A stretch of 5,903 bases of DNA, from NCBI GenBank assembly GCA_020346965.1, contig CP070793.1, positions 799,515 to 805,417 of the forward strand. The letters run 5' to 3'. This DNA comes from Chloroflexota bacterium (GTDB taxonomy: Bacteria; Chloroflexota; Dehalococcoidia; GIF9; AB-539-J10). The notes beneath the pieces are model-generated. The model was not told the DNA's origin. It worked only from the letters and a program-made list of their open reading frames with translations, and ran no database searches. The translations under genes and the position numbers were made by a program. Of the stretch, positions 1 to 5,903 are shown piece after piece; position 1 is the stretch's first letter, and the number at the start of each line of letters is the position of its first letter.

Positions 1-501
1 CTTAACAAGGTTCTTATCAATGAAGTTGTTCATCTCCCTGAGCATACCGTGGTGATAAATCTCCATCTCGGCTTTGATGCTGCGTCTAAGCATTTCTTGC
101 GCGAAGCGCTCCAATTCTGATCGTGGGTTAGCCCAACAGGTGCCGGCACTAGCCCCGAGGGTGCGGAGCATCGAGCCCATATTAAGGGATGCCATTTCAG
201 GTTTGGCGTCCAGACAGGCGAGGCGCTGATCGAATGTGAGTCCGGGGCCACCTCCGGTACTGTCCTGTAAAACAATATTGCACTTATTACGAATGGCAGC
301 ATGTATCTCTTTAAATATGGTCACATTGCCTGATGCCTTGCCTTCCTGGTCTCGGGCATGGAGATGGGCAATAGCGCAGCCCTCGTTATAGCATTCATAT
401 GCCTGTTGGGCAATTTCATCCGGTTGCTCCGGGAGGTTGGGATTTGCTGCCTTGGTCTGCACACCGCCGGTCAACGCGCAAGTGACGATAACTTTCCTCA
501 T
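1..501 (-). CDS. DUF849/BKACE beta-keto acid cleavage enzyme, 3' part missing (window edge)
   Basis: The reading frame runs open from an ATG at 501 to the window edge, giving 167 residues of a family that is usually about 270-310 long; the C-terminal part lies outside. Family hallmarks are visible in order: TCALTGG at residues 7-13, NPNLPEQPDEIA at 20-31, the zinc-binding HLHAR at 46-50 (H46 and H48 sit at the same numbers as the zinc ligands of the founding enzyme Kce), STGGG at 81-85, KPEMASLNMGS at 100-110 and EMEIYHHGM at 145-153. BKACE enzymes condense a beta-keto acid with acetyl-CoA and split it into a CoA ester and acetoacetate. Residue 14 is Val where Kce has the Glu that binds the substrate ammonium, so 3-keto-5-aminohexanoate is an unlikely substrate. 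Given the neighbours, triacetate (3,5-dioxohexanoate) acetoacetate-lyase is the best guess, by inference. The start is fixed by an AGGAGGA ribosome site just upstream. The gene is divergent from the molybdoenzyme gene. Confidence 0.93.
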   Translation of the reverse strand, partial: MRKVIVTCALTGGVQTKAANPNLPEQPDEIAQQAYECYNEGCAIAHLHARDQEGKASGNVTIFKEIHAAIRNKCNIVLQDSTGGGPGLTFDQRLACLDAKPEMASLNMGSMLRTLGASAGTCWANPRSELERFAQEMLRRSIKAEMEIYHHGMLREMNNFIDKNLVK

Positions 502-503
502 CT

Positions 504-511
504 ATCCTCCT
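504..511 (-). promoter_or_regulatory. Ribosome binding site of the BKACE gene
   Basis: On the minus strand AGGAGGAT lies two bases before the ATG at 501 (core AGGAGG at 511-506, five bases from the start codon). It is a near-perfect Shine-Dalgarno match and supports this start over internal Met codons. Confidence 0.8.
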
Positions 512-526
512 GTCGCACACAAATAA

Positions 527-558
527 TTGATTTGGCCTGAGATTGAAAATCAAATCAA
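527..558. repeat. Inverted repeat TTGATTTG-N16-CAAATCAA, possible operator
   Basis: Arms TTGATTTG (527-534) and CAAATCAA (551-558) are perfect reverse complements, separated by 16 bases. A smaller dyad GATT-gaa-AATC (541-551) is nested inside and overlaps the right arm. It lies between the BKACE ribosome site and the TATAAT box, where a regulator could control both directions. The alternative is a hairpin in the BKACE leader. No regulator gene is present in the window to pair with it. Confidence 0.4.
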
Positions 559-573
559 CAGCCCAAAAAACCA

Positions 574-605
574 TTGTTAACGTTGCTTTAGTATGTTAGT
601 ATAAT
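574..605 (+). promoter_or_regulatory. Candidate sigma-70-type promoter for the molybdoenzyme operon
   Basis: A perfect TATAAT is at 600-605. The upstream -35 is poor: TTGTTA at 574-579 gives a long 20-base spacer, and TTAACG at 577-582 gives the ideal 17-base spacer but matches TTGACA weakly. Transcription would begin near 612 and leave a leader of about 135 bases before the ATG at 748. Weak -35 elements are common at activator-dependent catabolic promoters, but that is only a suggestion here. Confidence 0.4.
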
Positions 606-609
606 CGAT

Positions 610-652
610 GTACCCAATAAAAGATACCACTCGCACTGTTCCTGCCGGGTAC
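610..652. repeat. Inverted repeat GTACCC ... GGGTAC with CGATGTA direct repeat
   Basis: GTACCC at 610-615 is matched by GGGTAC at 647-652 with a 31-base loop. The heptamer CGATGTA occurs at 606-612 and again at 652-658, each copy overlapping an arm. The structure falls at the start of the predicted leader. Six-base arms with a long loop could be chance. Confidence 0.25.
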
Positions 653-715
653 GATGTAACAGAGATTATCGGATACAACTTATGCCAGGATAAAAGAGAG
701 GGATACTGGTAGACA

Positions 716-734
716 TTCTCGAGCAGAGCGAGAA
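716..734 (+). promoter_or_regulatory. Small hairpin abutting the molybdoenzyme ribosome site
   Basis: TTCTCG (716-721) and CGAGAA (729-734) form a 6-bp stem with a 7-base loop. The stem touches the Shine-Dalgarno AAGGAGG (734-740) at its first base, so it would sit beside the site rather than hide it. It may have no function. Confidence 0.25.
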
Positions 735-740
735 AGGAGG
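734..740 (+). promoter_or_regulatory. Ribosome binding site of the molybdoenzyme gene
   Basis: AAGGAGG lies seven bases before the ATG at 748. It decides this start, and the protein begins at the same place as the AthL family, with no extension. Confidence 0.8.
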
Positions 741-747
741 ATAATCT

Positions 748-3267
748 ATGTCGGAGCAAGTCTTTACAAACTGCACCGTCGGTGGAGCGATCTCTGTTTA
801 TGTTAAAGATGGCAAGATTGTCAGAGTCCGTCCTATTGTAATCGACGAAAATGATTTGAAACCCTGGACTATTGAAGCGAAAGGCAAGAGATTTTCACCG
901 CCGAAACAGGTGAAGCTGGCACCTTATGTTCATAGCGAAAAACCCAGGCTGTATTCCGATGAGCGGATCAAATACCCGATGAAAAGAGTCGACTTTGATC
1001 CAAAGGGTGATAGACATCCTGAAACGAGGGGCAAGTCCCGGTACGAGAGGATAAGTTGGGACGAGGCACTAGATATAGTTGCCAGTGAGGCAAAGAGGAT
1101 TAGAGATACTTACGGCCCTTCCGCTATTACGGCGATAACATCATCGCATCATAATTGGGGCACCGTGAATTACAAATTGGGGCCGTTTATGAGATTCTTC
1201 AATCTACTGGGATTCACGTTCATCTTTGACAACCCGGATAGCTGGGAGGGTTTTCACTGGGGCGCAGTGCACGCCTTCGGTTTCTACTGGAGACTGGGTT
1301 GCGCTGAGCCATACGATCTCCTTGAGGATACCTTGAAAAACGCTGACATGGTAGTGTATTGGTCGAGTGATCCGTATGCCACCTGGGGATCATATTCTGG
1401 TGGTGAGTCACAGATATGGAGGCTCTGGATAAGGGAAGCAGGTATCAAACAGGTGTTTGTGGATCCATTCTGTAACTATGCCGCGACAACTATAGGAGAT
1501 AGATGGATCGCTCCCAAAGTCGGGACTGATTCAGCATTGGCTCTGGCTATTGCTTGTGTCTGGTTGAAGGATGATACATATGATAAAAAATACCTGGAAA
1601 CACATACTATAGGCTTTGAACAGTTCAGGGATTATGTGTTAGGCAAAGATGACAAGAAACCCAAGACGCCGAAGTGGGCTGAGAAAATCTGTGGTGTTCC
1701 GGCACGGCATATTACAGCATTGGCCAGGGAATGGGCATCTAAGAGGACGGTGCTCTCCTGCGGAGTACGGAGTGGGTTTGGTGGCGCAGGGCGTGTGGCA
1801 TACGGCCATGAGTGGGGGAGGCTCATGGTACTCCTGCAGGCGATGCAGGGCCTGGGTAAGCCGGGAGTTAGCATGTGGGGGAGTGGTCAGGGAGCACCTT
1901 TTGACGCTAGTTTCTTCTTCCCTGCCTACGCAGACGCCGATGGGAAACTCCCTGTCACCAGTGCTGCCGATAAGAAGACTGCCAATCCTGTACAGCAACG
2001 CCTTTATCGTTTGCTGTTCCCCGAAGCCATATTGAACCCGCCTGTAGAGTGGCTTGGTGAGGGTTTCTGCGGCAGTTCGATTGACCAACAGTTCAAGCCA
2101 TACAAATATCCTGCGCCGGGAGGATCAGAGGTAAAGATGTTCTATCGCTATGGAGGCTCGTTTATCGGCACTATGACAGAAACTAACAAATGGGTAATGG
2201 CATACCAGAGCCCCAAATTAGAATTCGTGGTCAACCAGGACTGCTGGTGGGGGAGTGAGACCAGGTTTGCTGATATCATCCTGCCGGCGTGCACAAATCT
2301 GGAGAGGGATGATATTGCCGAATTCGCCGGTCCCGGTGGCTATTCTACACATGGAGGTTGTGGTTGCAATTATAGGATCATCGTCCGGCAGAAGAAATGC
2401 GTCGAGCCCCTTTTTGAATCTAGGTCAGACTACGACATATTCGCTCTTCTGGCGGAGAGACTTGGTTTCAAAGATGATTTTACCGATGGAGGCAAGACAA
2501 TGCTGGACTGGGTCAGGAGATTCTTTGAAATATCCGACCTGCCCAAGCATATCTCATGGGAGGAATTCGACAGGAAAGGCTATTATGTGGTACCACTGCC
2601 CGATGATTACAAACCCACCCCGTCACTGCGCTGGTTCTACGAGGGCAGACCTTGTGATACACCTGACTCTATGAATCCCAAGAGGAATACGGAGAAAGGC
2701 AAGGAACTTGGTACTTACAGCGGCAAGATAGAGTTTGTCTCCCAGAGCTTGACACAGCATTTGCCTGATGACAAGGAACGACCTCCAATGCCCCGTTATA
2801 TCCCGAGCTGGGAAGGGCCAAATTCGCCGCTCGCCAGGAAATATCCGCTGCAGCTATTGTCACCGCATCCCAGGTACTCATTCCACACCCATTATGATAG
2901 CCATAGCCCCTGGTTAGCAGAAATACCCGGGCACCGCATCCAAAAGGATGGTTACAGCTACTGGGTGGCCAGAATACATCCGCACGATGCTGAGCCGCGG
3001 GGCATAAAACACGGCGATATAGTCAAATTGTATAATGATCGGGGAGCCGTACTCTGCATAGCGCAGGTAAGCGAGCGCTGTAAACCCGGTGTTGTCCACA
3101 GTTACTGTTCATCAACTAAATATGATCCCATGGAACCAGGGAAAGCCTATTCTATCGATAAAGGCGGCTGTGTCAACTTGCTTACTTCGGCGCGTATGCT
3201 GTCCAAGAATGCTCCGGGGATGGCACCCAACTCTTGCCTGATAGAAATCGAGAAGTGGGAGGCATAG
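748..3267 (+). CDS. Molybdopterin oxidoreductase, pyrogallol/phloroglucinol transhydroxylase large-subunit type
   Basis: This 839-residue protein belongs to the DMSO-reductase superfamily. Its closest match from memory is the large subunit of Pelobacter acidigallici transhydroxylase (AthL, 875 residues), which moves hydroxyl groups between pyrogallol and a 1,2,3,5-tetrahydroxybenzene co-substrate to give phloroglucinol. Resorcinol hydroxylase large subunit (RhL) is the main alternative. Shared blocks include YVKDGKIVR (18-26), YERISWDEA (99-107), SSHHNWG (132-138), NPDSWEG (162-168), YWSSDP (204-209), EYPAPG-like YKYPAPG (452-458), ADIILPACTN (508-517), and a C-terminal dinucleotide-binding domain from about residue 700 (LSPHPRYSFHT at 704-714, YNDRG at 762-766, GGC at 806-808). 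S165 aligns with the Mo ligand Ser175, and H134, D164 and Y394 align with active-site residues. As in AthL, there is no N-terminal Cys cluster for [4Fe-4S] and no twin-arginine signal, so a cytoplasmic location is expected. The Fe-S small subunit that AthL needs is not adjacent. First gene of a plus-strand operon. Confidence 0.88.
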   Translation: MSEQVFTNCTVGGAISVYVKDGKIVRVRPIVIDENDLKPWTIEAKGKRFSPPKQVKLAPYVHSEKPRLYSDERIKYPMKRVDFDPKGDRHPETRGKSRYERISWDEALDIVASEAKRIRDTYGPSAITAITSSHHNWGTVNYKLGPFMRFFNLLGFTFIFDNPDSWEGFHWGAVHAFGFYWRLGCAEPYDLLEDTLKNADMVVYWSSDPYATWGSYSGGESQIWRLWIREAGIKQVFVDPFCNYAATTIGDRWIAPKVGTDSALALAIACVWLKDDTYDKKYLETHTIGFEQFRDYVLGKDDKKPKTPKWAEKICGVPARHITALAREWASKRTVLSCGVRSGFGGAGRVAYGHEWGRLMVLLQAMQGLGKPGVSMWGSGQGAPFDASFFFPAYADADGKLPVTSAADKKTANPVQQRLYRLLFPEAILNPPVEWLGEGFCGSSIDQQFKPYKYPAPGGSEVKMFYRYGGSFIGTMTETNKWVMAYQSPKLEFVVNQDCWWGSETRFADIILPACTNLERDDIAEFAGPGGYSTHGGCGCNYRIIVRQKKCVEPLFESRSDYDIFALLAERLGFKDDFTDGGKTMLDWVRRFFEISDLPKHISWEEFDRKGYYVVPLPDDYKPTPSLRWFYEGRPCDTPDSMNPKRNTEKGKELGTYSGKIEFVSQSLTQHLPDDKERPPMPRYIPSWEGPNSPLARKYPLQLLSPHPRYSFHTHYDSHSPWLAEIPGHRIQKDGYSYWVARIHPHDAEPRGIKHGDIVKLYNDRGAVLCIAQVSERCKPGVVHSYCSSTKYDPMEPGKAYSIDKGGCVNLLTSARMLSKNAPGMAPNSCLIEIEKWEA

Positions 3268-3378
3268 TATATAATGGCTATGGTACTAAGAAGGTAAAGG
3301 TTAGAACCAACATCGATACTTATTTGGACAATGTATTATTAGGAGGCAAAAACGAATGAGCAATAAAGGAGGAAATAA
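3268..3378 (+). promoter_or_regulatory. Operon gap with tandem ribosome sites
   Basis: This 111-base gap contains two similar translation-start units in a row. The first is AGGAGG (3341-3346) nine bases before an ATG at 3356. The second is AAAGGAGG (3365-3372) six bases before the ATG at 3379 that opens the cyclase gene. The second is the functional start, because the cyclase family N-terminus (KFYDLTQPF) follows at once. No terminator hairpin with a T-run is visible, so read-through from the molybdoenzyme gene is likely. Confidence 0.5.
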
Positions 3379-3403
3379 ATGGCTCGAAAATTCTATGATC
3401 TGA
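3356..3403 (+). other. Possible 15-codon leader ORF overlapping the cyclase start
   Basis: An ATG at 3356 with its own AGGAGG opens a 15-codon frame (MSNKGGNKWLENSMI) ending in TGA at 3401-3403, out of frame with the cyclase gene and overlapping its first 25 bases. It resembles no protein I know. It could couple translation to the cyclase gene, be a leftover start from a lost gene, or be meaningless. Treat it as unproven. Confidence 0.2.
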
Positions 3404-4161
3404 CTCAACCTTTCTATTCTGGTGTCCCACTCTGGCCCTGGCCTGTGATGTATGACACTGAGATTTACAGGGTTACCTTTCCCGAATACGCCACCTTCCC
3501 AGGCGATCTAAAGAGAGGACGCGTTAACAAGATGACTACTGTTATCAAGACTAAAATGCATGCGTCCACCCACATGGATGCCCCATTACACGTTCTGGAG
3601 GGCGGTTTGAGCGTCGATAATATCCCGCTGTCAGACTGCTACGGGGAAGGCGTTGTCGTCGATATGAGACACCTTAAGAAATGGGATGTCATTGGCAAGA
3701 AAGACCTGGATAATGCCAAGCCCAAGATTAAGAAAGGCGATTTCGTTGTCGTCAATACCGGATGGCATAAATATTTCCCAACCTATGGTTATATTTTCTT
3801 CAATCATTTCCCGGGTTTCTATACCGAGGCAGCTGATTGGTTTGTCGAACACGAAGTAAAAGCAGTTGCTATCGATGGAGGAGCGACGGACCATCCCCTG
3901 GCTCACCCTCCGCTGCAGAAATGGCAACCAAATCTGTATGAAGAGTACAAGCGGGAAACGGGTAAAGATGCTGATAAGGAATTCCCGATTTATGAACCGA
4001 CCCACCTTGCATTAGCTAAGGCCGGCATACCCGGCATTGAGATAGCGGGCGGTCAAATTGATGAGGTCACCGGCAAGCGCTGCACACTGGCGTGCTTTCC
4101 GCTCCGTTTCCAGGACGGAGAAGCTTCACTGGTTCGATTAGTTGCTATTGTAGACGGGTAG
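3379..4161 (+). CDS. Cyclase-family metal-dependent hydrolase, possible dihydrophloroglucinol cyclohydrolase
   Basis: The 260-residue protein is a cyclase-family member (Pfam Cyclase, PF04199, kynurenine formamidase/isatin hydrolase fold). The signature HASTHMDAPLH is at 61-71, a variant of HxGTHxDxPxH with Ala-Ser in place of the usual x-Gly. Its H61, H65, D67 and H71 supply metal and catalytic positions. The distal pair H209 and E221 has the 12-residue spacing seen in KynB (H160/E172), and AIDGGATDHP (164-173) corresponds to the usual 'iGiD...D' block. All expected metal-site residues are therefore present, so it should be an active, probably cytoplasmic, hydrolase; no signal peptide is visible. 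Members cleave cyclic or acylated amide and ketone substrates. Beside a transhydroxylase-like molybdoenzyme, an SDR and a BKACE, hydrolytic ring opening of dihydrophloroglucinol to 3-hydroxy-5-oxohexanoate is the most likely role. That is inference; formamidase or another cyclic-ketone hydrolase cannot be excluded. AAAGGAGG six bases upstream fixes the start. Confidence 0.85.
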   Translation: MARKFYDLTQPFYSGVPLWPWPVMYDTEIYRVTFPEYATFPGDLKRGRVNKMTTVIKTKMHASTHMDAPLHVLEGGLSVDNIPLSDCYGEGVVVDMRHLKKWDVIGKKDLDNAKPKIKKGDFVVVNTGWHKYFPTYGYIFFNHFPGFYTEAADWFVEHEVKAVAIDGGATDHPLAHPPLQKWQPNLYEEYKRETGKDADKEFPIYEPTHLALAKAGIPGIEIAGGQIDEVTGKRCTLACFPLRFQDGEASLVRLVAIVDG

Positions 4162-4193
4162 TAGCTGGCGACCATTATAGATTACACTGGTTG

Positions 4194-4200
4194 AAGGAGG
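4194..4200 (+). promoter_or_regulatory. Ribosome binding site of the SDR gene
   Basis: AAGGAGG lies nine bases before the ATG at 4210, inside the 48-base gap after the cyclase stop. The gap shows no terminator or promoter, which fits one transcript for the three plus-strand genes. Confidence 0.75.
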
Positions 4201-4209
4201 TTAAATACC

Positions 4210-4983
4210 ATGACCGATATGTTTAGACTGGACGGGAAGGTGGCTGTGGTGATTGGGGGAGCAGGTGGCATTGGCACACTCATCGCGACGGGCCTGGCCG
4301 GACAGGGGGCCAGGGTGGCTATCGCCAGTCGCAATATGCAAAAACTGGAGCAGGTGGCTAACAAGATTCAGGCGGAAAGCGAATCAGAAGTAGTAGCATT
4401 TCAGGTTGACATCACCGATGAGCAGAGTGTGGCTCAATTGGTGGAGAGAGTTGTATCCAGATTCGGAACAGTTGACGTACTGGTAAATGCTCAAGGGGTA
4501 AATCTCAAAAGGCCCGCCGCGGAATTTCCTGTGGATGATTGGGACCTGATGTTTGGCGTCAACGTTAAAGGCACAATGTTGGCCTGTCGCGAGTTTGGAA
4601 AAGTGATGATCGGCAAAGAAAAGGGGAAAGTCATCAATTTGTCCTCCGTCAGAGGCATACGAGCTACTCTTTGGGGTGGTAACGAAGCCTATTGCGCTAC
4701 CAAAGGTGCAGTGGATATGATAACCAGGACGTTAGCTGCTGAATGGGCACCGCACAACATTAATGTGAATGCTATTGCGCCTTCTTTAATATACACGGAG
4801 CTTGCAGCACGGACCTTACAGGATCCGGAGCGCCTTCAAAGATATCTGGCCAATGTGCCGTTGAAGCGAGTAGGTCAACCCAAGGATGTGGTAGGTGTAT
4901 GTGTATTCCTGGCTTCGGACGCCTCGGATTTTATCACCGGTCAAATCCTGTACGTTGACGGCGGACTCACTGCTGTCGGCTGA
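4210..4983 (+). CDS. Classical short-chain dehydrogenase/reductase, candidate phloroglucinol reductase
   Basis: The 257-residue length is typical of a classical SDR. Visible motifs are the nucleotide-binding GGAGGIG (16-22, in place of TGxxxGIG), SRN at 40-42 after the second strand (the Arg suggests NADPH preference), VDITD (66-70), NAQG (93-96, a variant of NNAG), catalytic N118, S145/S146, Y161 and K165 (YCATK), NAIAP (187-191) and the C-terminal ITGQILYVDGG (242-252). The tetrad is intact, so the enzyme should be active and soluble. Overall it resembles the gluconate-5-dehydrogenase/3-oxoacyl-reductase-like branch, where substrate cannot be read from sequence. The operon suggests either NADPH-dependent reduction of phloroglucinol to dihydrophloroglucinol or the 3-hydroxy-5-oxohexanoate dehydrogenase step. 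Phloroglucinol reductase is slightly favoured because of the NADPH-type Arg, but this is inference. It is the last gene of the plus-strand run. Confidence 0.9.
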   Translation: MTDMFRLDGKVAVVIGGAGGIGTLIATGLAGQGARVAIASRNMQKLEQVANKIQAESESEVVAFQVDITDEQSVAQLVERVVSRFGTVDVLVNAQGVNLKRPAAEFPVDDWDLMFGVNVKGTMLACREFGKVMIGKEKGKVINLSSVRGIRATLWGGNEAYCATKGAVDMITRTLAAEWAPHNINVNAIAPSLIYTELAARTLQDPERLQRYLANVPLKRVGQPKDVVGVCVFLASDASDFITGQILYVDGGLTAVG

Positions 4984-5116
4984 GTGTGAGATACCTTGAA
5001 AGCAAAGCCTTCGAGGTCCTCGTATTCGCTAAGAACACTTGACAGGGGGATGATTATCTCGAAGTCGGACCACTGACCAACACCACAGGCGTCGCTGTGT
5101 TGCTATTTCAAACGCA
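4984..5116. other. Convergent intergenic gap with weak dyads
   Basis: These 133 bases separate the SDR stop from the thiolase stop. Two small dyads are visible: CGAGG-t-CCTCG (5012-5022, a one-base centre that is too tight for an RNA hairpin) and CAACAC (5078-5083) with GTGTTG (5097-5102), whose interior can alternatively pair as CACAG/CTGTG. Neither is followed by a clear T-run on either strand, so a classical bidirectional terminator is not demonstrated. No gene is seen. Confidence 0.4.
5078..5102. terminator. Weak candidate hairpin between convergent genes
   Basis: CAACAC/GTGTTG arms enclose a 13-base interior that can also form CACAG-gcgtcg-CTGTG. It sits 15 bases beyond the thiolase stop on the minus strand and about 95 bases after the SDR stop. 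The lack of a following T-run makes intrinsic termination doubtful. Confidence 0.2.
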
Positions 5117-5903
5117 TTAGATGCTCAGGATGGTAGTGCCGCTGTTGCCCATCAGTCCATAAGTCTGTGCCATAGCTACTTTTGGTTTGCTCACCTGGCG
5201 CTCGCCGCATCTTCCCCTGAGTTGATTCGCGCATTCGATAACCTGCCAGATTGCTTGAGCCGAGAGCGCCTCGCCATGTGAAGAGAATCCACCGCTTGGA
5301 TTTACAGGCAGCTTCCCGTCTATTTTGGTCTCACCGTCGCCCAGCATCTTATCTGCTTCGCCTTCCCCACAGAAGCCGCATACTTCCAGATACACTAAGT
5401 AATGCCAGGAACTGTTGTCCGGTAGTTCCAGCACGTCTATGTCCTGCGGACCGATGCCGGATTTTTCATAAGCCTGGCGTGAAGCAGAATGGCTTTCGCT
5501 CAACATTGGTGCTTCAGGCACTGCCGGGCAAGACACGGCTGAAATGCGTATGGTCGGGTCGCCATACATAGAGCTTCCCATAGTAGTTGCATTAATCTTG
5601 ACTGGCTTGTCGGCTTTGCTGAGTAATTCCTTGTCGGCCGTTACAATCAAAGCTGCAGCACCCGTACTAACCGGGCAGATCTCATATAATCTTAGTGGTT
5701 CACAAACGTAGACCGAGTTCAATACTTCATCCAGTGTATAGGCTTTTTTAAACCGAGCGTCCGGATTCTTGGAACCGTATTCGCTCATCAGCACCTTTAC
5801 CAATGCCAGATCCTGTTCGGTCGTATCGTATTTAGCCATTCTTTTCCTGCATTCCAGCGCCCAGTAAATGGGGTTAGGCATGGCGGTCATTTTCCATCTG
5901 ATC
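5117..5903 (-). CDS. Lipid-transfer/SCP2-type thiolase-fold protein, 5' part missing (window edge)
   Basis: The frame is open from the right edge to the TAA at 5119-5117: 261 residues. The Met encoded at 5890 is not the likely start, because the frame continues upstream (IRWK) and the sequence enters the family at about residue 130-150 of a normal 380-400. Recognisable blocks, numbered from that Met, are the mid-domain KYDTTEQDLALV (20-31) with KNPDARFKKAYTLDEVLNS (41-59), PLRLYEICPVSTGAAALIV (65-83), GIGPQDIDVLELPD (145-158), LPVNPSGGFSSHGEALSAQ (194-212) and QLRG (223-226). The nucleophile Cys region lies outside. The usual HDCF/NEAF box is LPDN here, and the C-terminal Cys motif is replaced by AQTYG (241-245). 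Such proteins include thiolases and thiolase-fold retro-aldolases that work with DUF35 partners. In this locus, acetoacetyl-CoA thiolysis is a possible role but is not established. Confidence 0.88.
   Translation of the reverse strand, partial: IRWKMTAMPNPIYWALECRKRMAKYDTTEQDLALVKVLMSEYGSKNPDARFKKAYTLDEVLNSVYVCEPLRLYEICPVSTGAAALIVTADKELLSKADKPVKINATTMGSSMYGDPTIRISAVSCPAVPEAPMLSESHSASRQAYEKSGIGPQDIDVLELPDNSSWHYLVYLEVCGFCGEGEADKMLGDGETKIDGKLPVNPSGGFSSHGEALSAQAIWQVIECANQLRGRCGERQVSKPKVAMAQTYGLMGNSGTTILSI

What the first reader, a model, noticed from the sequence alone, without database searches (positions are those of the whole stretch)
1..5903. Candidate anaerobic pyrogallol/phloroglucinol degradation locus
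Seen: BKACE, AthL-like molybdoenzyme, cyclase-family hydrolase, SDR and thiolase-fold genes side by side. Known: in anaerobes, pyrogallol is converted to phloroglucinol by transhydroxylase, phloroglucinol is reduced, the dihydro product is hydrolytically opened, the hydroxyoxohexanoate is oxidised to triacetate, and triacetate is cleaved by a BKACE-type lyase. Inference: the window encodes most of this route, with one oxidoreductase step (second dehydrogenase) and the Fe-S subunit not in view. The grouping in a genome that seems not to be one of the classic fermenters would extend the known range of the pathway.
Basis: partly seen in the sequence, partly recalled or inferred. Interest (0 to 1): 0.75.

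Follow-up and report, generated by a model that had tools for sequence, protein, structure and literature searches.

The report
Bacterial genes for airless polyphenol breakdown
The DNA carries part of a gene cluster, from an uncultured relative of Dehalococcoides, that probably opens hydroxylated benzene rings without oxygen in the way known for phloroglucinol; it looks like a second, differently built version of that pathway, and one enzyme subunit is cut down to a stub in this sequence.

Summary
All five genes are real: BKACE (start only), AthL-like molybdoenzyme, cyclase-family hydrolase, SDR, thiolase (end only). The phloroglucinol-type reading is partly supported. Closest relatives are Dehalococcoidia MAGs (cyclase 93%, AthL 95%, BKACE 93% identical). 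Cyclase orthologues (80-81%) sit in sets with the four gene families of the characterised Clostridium scatologenes pathway; the SDR carries an Arg found in 45 of 45 such cluster SDRs.

Three corrections. (1) The Fe-S subunit is in view as a stub: window 3274-3359 is the AthS start joined out of frame to its last 26 codons; relatives hold an intact gene there. (2) The missing dehydrogenase is of the 3-hydroxyacyl-CoA-dehydrogenase family, not an SDR; in one relative it lies downstream of the window's BKACE. (3) The window's AthL groups apart from Pelobacter transhydroxylase. AthLS+cyclase loci come in a classical type (TfD, cupin, BKACE; 4 loci) and a window type (acyl-CoA synthetase, crotonase, thiolase/DUF35; 3 loci), plus one mixed and one cut-off locus. 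Four of four genomes with the window type also carry classical genes: a paralogous second set, perhaps for another polyphenol.

AthLS in Chloroflexi was already in print. New variant of a known kind.

The parts
1..501 (-). BKACE-family gene, first 167 codons (rest off the left edge); Val at the place of the Glu14 of lysine-fermentation Kce
   Evidence: PF05853; 93% identical to L123:454-1296 in genome G006; E14 to V read from the alignment of that orthologue with 2y7d and from the window's own letters
502..747 (.). divergent intergenic region between BKACE and AthL
   Evidence: sequence; AAAGGAGG ahead of the AthL start read by eye
748..3267 (+). AthL-like bis-MGD molybdoenzyme large subunit, 839 aa
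   Evidence: PF21423/PF00384/PF01568; 51% identity to Pelobacter AthL; 10 of 12 inspected active-site columns the same, R153K and W354F differ (choice of columns recalled)
3274..3359 (+). remnant of athS (Fe-S small subunit): start codon at 3274 reads MAMVLRR-stop; 3279-3359 is the last 26 codons plus stop in another frame; about 770 bases are missing against L006
   Evidence: local DNA scores 60 and 70 against shuffle maxima of 31 and 28 in 200 shuffles each; the intact AthS of L006 matches 4v4c_B with 231 bits
3379..4161 (+). cyclase-family (PF04199) hydrolase, 260 aa, dihydrophloroglucinol-cyclohydrolase-like
4210..4983 (+). SDR, 257 aa, phloroglucinol-reductase-like (SSVR motif, IAPS, SRN)
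5117..5902 (-). C-terminal 261 residues of an SCP2-type thiolase; in L006 the orthologue is followed by DUF35-like, crotonase and ADP-forming acyl-CoA synthetase genes
   Evidence: PF22691; 89% to L006:3830-5011; neighbours

Best explanation
The window is the middle of a Dehalococcoidia-type (Chloroflexota) cluster for oxygen-free opening of a meta-polyhydroxylated benzene ring by phloroglucinol-type chemistry. Inferred steps: an AthLS-type molybdenum enzyme moves or installs a ring hydroxyl; the PGR-like SDR reduces the keto tautomer; the cyclase-family hydrolase opens the resulting cyclic 1,3-diketone by hydrolytic C-C cleavage to a hydroxy-oxo acid; that acid is finished either by a 3HCDH-type dehydrogenase plus BKACE (BKACE in the window, the dehydrogenase expected to its left) or as a CoA thioester through ADP-forming acyl-CoA synthetase, crotonase and thiolase/DUF35 (thiolase in the window, the rest expected to its right). 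It is not the classical set but a paralogous second set, which in relatives occurs beside classical genes. In this particular sequence the Fe-S subunit of the Mo enzyme is lost or lost in assembly. Shown here: gene identities, clades, residues, conserved neighbourhoods, the stub. Inferred: every reaction and the substrate.
For: Cyclase orthologues at 80-81% identity lie in L007 and L009 with BKACE, SDR, cupin, 3HCDH and CoA transferase genes, the gene families that Zhou et al. 2023 characterised. The window's BKACE orthologue (93%) heads BKACE-cyclase-SDR-cupin-3HCDH in L123. SDR: Arg after the catalytic SS in 45 of 45 cluster SDRs, 0 of 5 named SDRs, 0 of 5 other SDRs of the loci, 3 of 27 SDRs of genome G007, of which two are themselves cluster SDRs. 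Cyclase: metal-site letters and Trp19 kept in 7 of 7 window-clade loci (one is cut off before positions 206 and 209). AthL-AthS-cyclase-SDR-thiolase-DUF35-crotonase-synthetase in L006, the same gene kinds in L010 and L012. Paralogy: G001, G005, G006 and G007 hold window-type AthLS-cyclase and, elsewhere, classical-type genes with a Pelobacter-side AthL (L136, L133/L138, L139, L135).
Against: No substrate is shown. The cyclase lies outside the 33-row clade of classical cyclases. The BKACE orthologue reaches neither NCBIfam cut-off (Kce 281.7 of 382; 3,5-dioxohexanoate enzyme 228.9 of 430). Best PDB match of the SDR is gluconate 5-dehydrogenase. AthL-type enzymes at 46-49% identity also sit in Proteobacteria beside VOC and fumarylacetoacetate-hydrolase genes, so the family does not fix the substrate. 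No 3HCDH gene was found within 8 kb of the cyclase in L006, L010 or L012. L072 is a mixed case: crotonase fused to a cyclase of the classical clade, with an AthL on the Pelobacter side. The AthS stub argues that this copy of the Mo enzyme may not work.
Confidence: 0.65

Rival explanations
1. Exactly the first reader's route: this AthLS converts pyrogallol to phloroglucinol, and SDR, cyclase, dehydrogenase and BKACE take it to acetoacetate units as in Pelobacter and C. scatologenes.
For: Pelobacter AthL is the best solved relative by far; 10 of 12 inspected active-site columns agree; Phe at 354 also occurs in L014, an AthL beside a classical cluster, so W354F is not diagnostic; in G002, G003 and G004 the window-type cyclase is the only one found.
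Against: The window's AthL groups apart from Pelobacter and from all six AthLs of classical clusters in the tree; four of four genomes with the window-type AthLS-cyclase already have a Pelobacter-side AthLS beside classical genes, so a second identical route is less expected; different partner genes.
Confidence: 0.25
2. Another aromatic or alicyclic catabolism that only shares enzyme families: for example a resorcinol-type or other 1,3-diketone route ending in beta-oxidation, with no phloroglucinol-like intermediate.
For: Crotonase, ADP-forming acyl-CoA synthetase and thiolase/DUF35 in L006, L010 and L012, absent from the four classical AthLS loci; resorcinol hydroxylase RhL is placed with PgtL in one family (passage); AthL relatives in other contexts.
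Against: Cyclase orthologues at 80-81% in Zhou-like sets (L007, L009); SDR signature shared with classical cluster SDRs; BKACE next door in the window. No acyl-CoA dehydrogenase was recognised by eye among the genes listed for L006, L010 and L012, but it was not searched for by profile. RhL's own sequence was not in hand.
Confidence: 0.2
3. For the stub: a real deletion has removed athS in this organism, so the window's Mo enzyme is inactive or borrows an AthS from another of its AthL paralogues; or the join is an assembly error across short repeats and the genome has an intact athS.
For: The stub keeps the start and the last 26 codons of AthS, out of frame; intact AthS at this place in L006, L011, L010 and L012 and directly after AthL in L124; several AthS copies per genome.
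Against: AthL is open over 839 codons with active-site letters intact, which speaks against old decay. No reads are available to separate deletion from misassembly.
Confidence: 0.5

Closest known systems
Anaerobic phloroglucinol pathway of Clostridium scatologenes (PGR, DPGC, TfD, TAL; Zhou et al. 2023, PMC10470551, parts 1-3 of 7 read)
   Same: SDR, cyclase-family hydrolase, BKACE; orthologous sets in L007, L009 and L123 add the 3HCDH-family dehydrogenase; Trp at the Trp20 place of CsDPGC
   Different: Trp instead of Tyr at the Tyr22 place; Val instead of Trp16 at the BKACE site; linked to AthLS and, in relatives, to acyl-CoA synthetase, crotonase and thiolase/DUF35; cyclase outside the classical clade
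Pyrogallol-phloroglucinol transhydroxylase AthLS of Pelobacter acidigallici (PDB 4v4c)
   Same: domain make-up, 51% identity, Ser ligand and most inspected active-site letters; AthS partner in relatives
   Different: separate branch; R153K, W354F; small subunit is a stub in the window
AthLS genes of sediment Chloroflexi (RBG-2, RBG-1351, DEH-C11; passages of PMC3971608 and PMC4959651)
   Same: phylum, and the inference of pyrogallol use
   Different: the passages seen name AthLS only; they do not name the cyclase, SDR, BKACE or dehydrogenase steps
Resorcinol hydroxylase RhLS (named in passages of PMC10100899)
   Same: said there to be of the same Ser-ligated family as PgtL
   Different: not compared; sequence not in hand

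Membership tests
Pyrogallol-phloroglucinol transhydroxylase (AthLS/PgtLS) | AthL-type large subunit with Ser ligand and active-site letters of 4v4c | tested here: met
   PF21423; 10 of 12 inspected columns the same, R153K and W354F (column choice recalled)
Pyrogallol-phloroglucinol transhydroxylase (AthLS/PgtLS) | groups with the characterised Pelobacter enzyme | tested here: not met
   Pelobacter in a 14-row group (SH-aLRT 97), window in a 17-row group (97) on the other side (quick tree, 42 rows, no bootstrap)
Pyrogallol-phloroglucinol transhydroxylase (AthLS/PgtLS) | AthS [4Fe-4S] partner | tested here: not met
   only an out-of-frame stub at 3274-3359; intact in L006, L010, L011, L012 and L124
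Pyrogallol-phloroglucinol transhydroxylase (AthLS/PgtLS) | transhydroxylase activity | not testable with these tools
   needs enzyme assay
Dihydrophloroglucinol cyclohydrolase (DPGC) | PF04199 fold and metal-site letters | tested here: met
   PF04199; His61, His65, Asp67
Dihydrophloroglucinol cyclohydrolase (DPGC) | Trp20 and Tyr22 (CsDPGC numbering) | tested here: inconclusive
   Trp19 kept, Trp21 in place of Tyr; Tyr in 74 of 78 classical loci, Trp in 7 of 7 window-clade loci
Dihydrophloroglucinol cyclohydrolase (DPGC) | inside the clade of classical-cluster cyclases | tested here: not met
   classical clade of 33 rows, support 99/100, excludes it; deeper order unresolved (75 of 120 rows used)
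Dihydrophloroglucinol cyclohydrolase (DPGC) | neighbourhood with PGR, TfD and TAL families | tested here: met
   for orthologues L007 and L009 (80-81%); in the window only SDR and BKACE are in view
Phloroglucinol reductase (PGR) | SDR grouping with SDRs of classical phloroglucinol clusters | tested here: met
   45-row group, support 87/94 (moderate, long branches flagged); Arg signature 45 of 45. A characterised PGR sequence was not in hand
Phloroglucinol reductase (PGR) | TR(S/N) NADPH motif | tested here: inconclusive
   SRN in the window; the same motif occurs in gluconate 5-dehydrogenase 1vl8
Triacetate acetoacetate-lyase (TAL, BKACE family) | NCBIfam NF053538 cut-off | tested here: not met
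   orthologue L123 228.9 of 430 bits; the BKACE of the Acetoanaerobium classical set also fails (228.1), the Novosphingobium one passes (504.3)
Triacetate acetoacetate-lyase (TAL, BKACE family) | Glu14 of lysine-type Kce replaced (Trp16 in CsTAL) | tested here: inconclusive
   Glu replaced by Val, not Trp
Triacetate-forming dehydrogenase (TfD) | 3HCDH-family gene in the cluster | tested here: inconclusive
   not in the window; in L123 behind the orthologous BKACE; not within 8 kb of the cyclase in L006, L010 and L012

The most novel reading that the evidence does not exclude
There are two kinds of AthLS-cyclase-SDR pathway that live side by side in one genome: the classical pyrogallol/phloroglucinol set and a second set, to which the window belongs, with its own branch of AthL, for a different polyhydroxybenzene (for example a C-substituted phloroglucinol, hydroxyhydroquinone or another isomer) whose ring-opened acid is finished as a CoA thioester by ADP-forming acyl-CoA synthetase, crotonase and thiolase/DUF35 instead of as free triacetate.
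Probability: 0.4. Interest if true: 0.65.

Novelty: new variant of a known kind. Interest (0 to 1): 0.5.

Why it matters
Whether polyphenols are broken down without oxygen decides how much carbon peat and sediments keep (the enzyme-latch question, as put in the abstract of PMC10470551). The chemistry is established in few organisms. A second gene set in Dehalococcoidia and Deltaproteobacteria would widen both the range of organisms and, if the substrate differs, the range of phenols, and gives marker genes (window-type AthL plus cyclase) that can be looked for in metagenomes and assayed directly.

Tried and rejected
Considered and rejected: lysine-fermentation Kce for the BKACE (Glu14 is Val; score under the Kce cut-off); kynurenine formamidase or isatin hydrolase for the cyclase (40.1 of 223.05 bits for TIGR03035; solved enzymes match the family profile only weakly); a plain sugar-acid SDR (Arg signature); W354F as proof of a new substrate (Phe also in L014). 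A claim that the Chloroflexota cyclases are the sister clade of classical ones was dropped: the deep forks are weak.

No structure prediction was run. The class-wide counts are low and, for AthL, only up to three candidates per genome were scored.

Rows dropped before counts: alignment A1 used 43 of 120 listed homologues; the cyclase tree 75 of 120 rows; for the SDR tree and signature only 22 of the 67 loci L018-L084 were used, with duplicate loci and rows under 200 aa left out; the AthL tree left out duplicate loci and used 12 of 120 listed homologues. In one search the reference crotonase, synthetase and DUF35 came from L006 and the thiolase from the window, so L006 matches by construction; L010 and L012 are the independent cases.
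Full report
What is there. The window has five protein genes in three groups: BKACE leftward (1-501, cut), AthL-cyclase-SDR rightward (748-4983) and a thiolase leftward (5117-5902, cut). No tRNA was found. AthL's nearest solved relative is the large subunit of Pelobacter pyrogallol hydroxytransferase (925 bits; next best 284); identity is 51%.

Who it belongs to. A scan of one genome per species with a cyclase alignment gave 79 loci. The closest are Dehalococcoidia MAGs: L006 (cyclase 93%), L011 (91% over the 190 residues before its contig ends), L008 (84%), L007 (81%), L009 (80%); L010, a Deltaproteobacteria MAG, has 71%. One genome, G006 (that of L011), also holds an AthL with 95% identity and a BKACE with 93%. 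The window is therefore most likely from an uncultured Dehalococcoidia. The trait is rare there: a cyclase match at E 1e-40 in 4 of 294 genomes of the class and an AthL match at 1e-100 in 6 of 294 (at most three candidates scored per genome).

The stub. In L006, L010, L011 and L012 an intact AthS gene lies between AthL and the cyclase, and in L124 it follows AthL directly; L006's AthS matches Pelobacter AthS with 231 bits. In the window the gap is 111 bases. It begins with the AthS start (ATG at 3274), which reads seven codons and stops, and then carries, in another frame, the last 26 codons and stop of AthS (3279-3359). The DNA match to L006 and L011 scores 60 and 70 against maxima of 31 and 28 in 200 shuffles. 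The match to the 95% relative L085 (the same AthL as in L124) breaks off at 3278, just there. About 770 bases are missing. Real deletion and assembly error cannot be told apart without reads.

The pathway. Zhou et al. 2023 (PMC10470551; parts 1 to 3 of 7 read, and passages) showed for C. scatologenes: PGR (SDR), DPGC (cyclase family, Mn2+), TfD (a 3-hydroxyacyl-CoA-dehydrogenase-family protein) and TAL (BKACE family). The set cyclase-BKACE-SDR-cupin-3HCDH-CoA transferase stands in L007 and L009 with cyclases 80-81% identical to the window's; in L008's genome it is spread over two contigs. The window's BKACE orthologue heads BKACE-cyclase-SDR-cupin-3HCDH in L123. So the genes expected to the left of the window are a second cyclase and SDR, a cupin and the dehydrogenase. 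The cupin's role is unknown to me; it was not named in the parts of the paper that I read.

The cyclase. Trp at the place of CsDPGC Trp20 is kept in 78 of 78 classical loci, 7 of 7 window-clade loci and 24 of 24 database homologues used, against 2 of 6 outgroup rows; the Tyr22 place is Tyr in 74 of 78 classical loci and Trp in 7 of 7 window-clade loci. CsDPGC itself was not in hand; the Acetoanaerobium protein of L005 has Trp20 and Tyr22 at the same numbers. In the tree the classical clade (33 rows, support 99/100) leaves the window's group out; deeper forks are weak. Three cyclases that look like members by context differ more at the second site (L123 Phe; the two L013 cyclases Gly and Arg).

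The SDR. SDRs of the clusters form one group of 45 rows (87/94, moderate; long outgroup branches). All 45 have Arg directly after the SS[VT or other] of the catalytic motif, and 40 of 45 also Ser or Thr where most other SDRs have Gly after AP. Controls: Arg in 0 of 5 named SDRs, 0 of 5 non-cluster SDRs of the same loci and 3 of 27 SDRs of genome G007, two of which are cluster SDRs. This shows membership of a clade, not activity. Against: the best PDB hit is gluconate 5-dehydrogenase; the SDR of the Acetoanaerobium classical set has the same best hit.

The BKACE. Kce's Glu14, which binds the amino group, is Val, so lysine fermentation is unlikely; CsTAL has Trp there. The L123 orthologue fails the NCBIfam cut-offs for Kce and for the 3,5-dioxohexanoate enzyme, as does the BKACE of the Acetoanaerobium classical set.

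A second set. AthL copies are several per genome (matches in 9 of 12 genomes searched, 1 to 12 each). In a tree of 42 AthLs (quick method, SH-aLRT only), Pelobacter and all six AthLs that sit with classical genes fall in one group of 14 (97), together with plasmid copies from Proteobacteria; the window falls in another (17 rows, 97). Nine loci hold AthL, AthS and a cyclase within 8 kb. Four (L014, L135, L136, L138) also have 3HCDH, cupin, SDR and BKACE, and none of crotonase, acyl-CoA synthetase, thiolase or DUF35. Three (L006, L010, L012) have crotonase, both synthetase subunits, thiolase, DUF35 and SDR, and no 3HCDH; L012 adds cupin and BKACE. L006 is the source of three of the reference proteins, so L010 and L012 are the independent cases. 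L011 ends inside its cyclase. L072, an archaeal MAG, is mixed: crotonase fused to a cyclase in one 613-residue frame, AthL on the Pelobacter side, no 3HCDH in the short flank. Among 75 other cyclase loci without AthLS the thiolase and DUF35 occur in 0, the synthetase in 1, crotonase in 3 (none at 50% identity or more), 3HCDH in 52, SDR in 71. By AthL clade, neighbours and order the window belongs with the second type, with a BKACE added.

Side by side. The four genomes with a window-type AthLS-cyclase (G001, G005, G006, G007) also hold classical genes: L136; L133 and L138; L139 (cupin-3HCDH-BKACE-AthL-AthS, the contig starting at the cupin, so its cyclase is not seen); L135 (cyclase seen only in part). 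In three genomes where the window-type cyclase sits in a Zhou-like set (G002, G003, G004) no classical cyclase was found. The MAGs' completeness is not given, so absences are weak. This pattern suggests a parallel pathway for a related substrate rather than a spare copy, but in G002 to G004 the same cyclase type seems to serve the main route, which speaks for phloroglucinol itself.

Against a quick substrate call. AthL relatives at 46-49% identity lie on plasmids of Burkholderia, Ensifer and Salipiger beside VOC and fumarylacetoacetate-hydrolase genes, so AthL ancestry does not fix the substrate.

What is in print. Passages of Hug et al. 2013 (PMC3971608) and of the DEH-C11 paper (PMC4959651) report pyrogallol hydroxytransferases in Chloroflexi and infer pyrogallol use. 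Zhou et al. list the cluster in Proteobacteria, sulfate reducers, Archaeoglobus and Mycobacterium; the words Chloroflex- and Dehalococc- do not occur in its main text (supplements not seen). Searches listed no paper whose title or shown abstract describes the second set; most listed papers were not opened.

Verdict. The route type is likely (0.65); the exact pyrogallol-to-phloroglucinol role of this AthL is not established (0.25). The most novel open reading, a second polyphenol pathway with thioester finishing, stands at 0.4.

Noticed in passing
L072:8918-10759: In a Thaumarchaeota MAG a crotonase (PF00378) and a cyclase (PF04199) are fused in one open frame between AthS and the SDR, linking crotonase to this chemistry.
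   Followed up: partly
genomes G003 and G006: Large numbers of AthL paralogues in small genomes (12 matches in G003, 7 in G006), some with no AthS found beside them.
   Followed up: partly
L190, L191, L192: AthLS pairs on plasmids of Proteobacteria beside VOC-family and fumarylacetoacetate-hydrolase genes; function unclear.
   Followed up: no
L123:3-320 and 4367-4627: Transposase-like fragments flank the BKACE-cyclase-SDR-cupin-3HCDH set at both ends of its contig, by eye.
   Followed up: no
L125: A Deltaproteobacteria locus has BKACE-SDR-cupin-3HCDH with TRAP transporters, thiolase and DUF35 but no cyclase.
   Followed up: no
L009:4180-5106: An AthS-like gene without an AthL next to it.
   Followed up: no
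L008:2143-3753: Two neighbouring SDRs, one with Asp (NADH-type) and one with Arg (NADPH-type) after the second strand, by eye.
   Followed up: no
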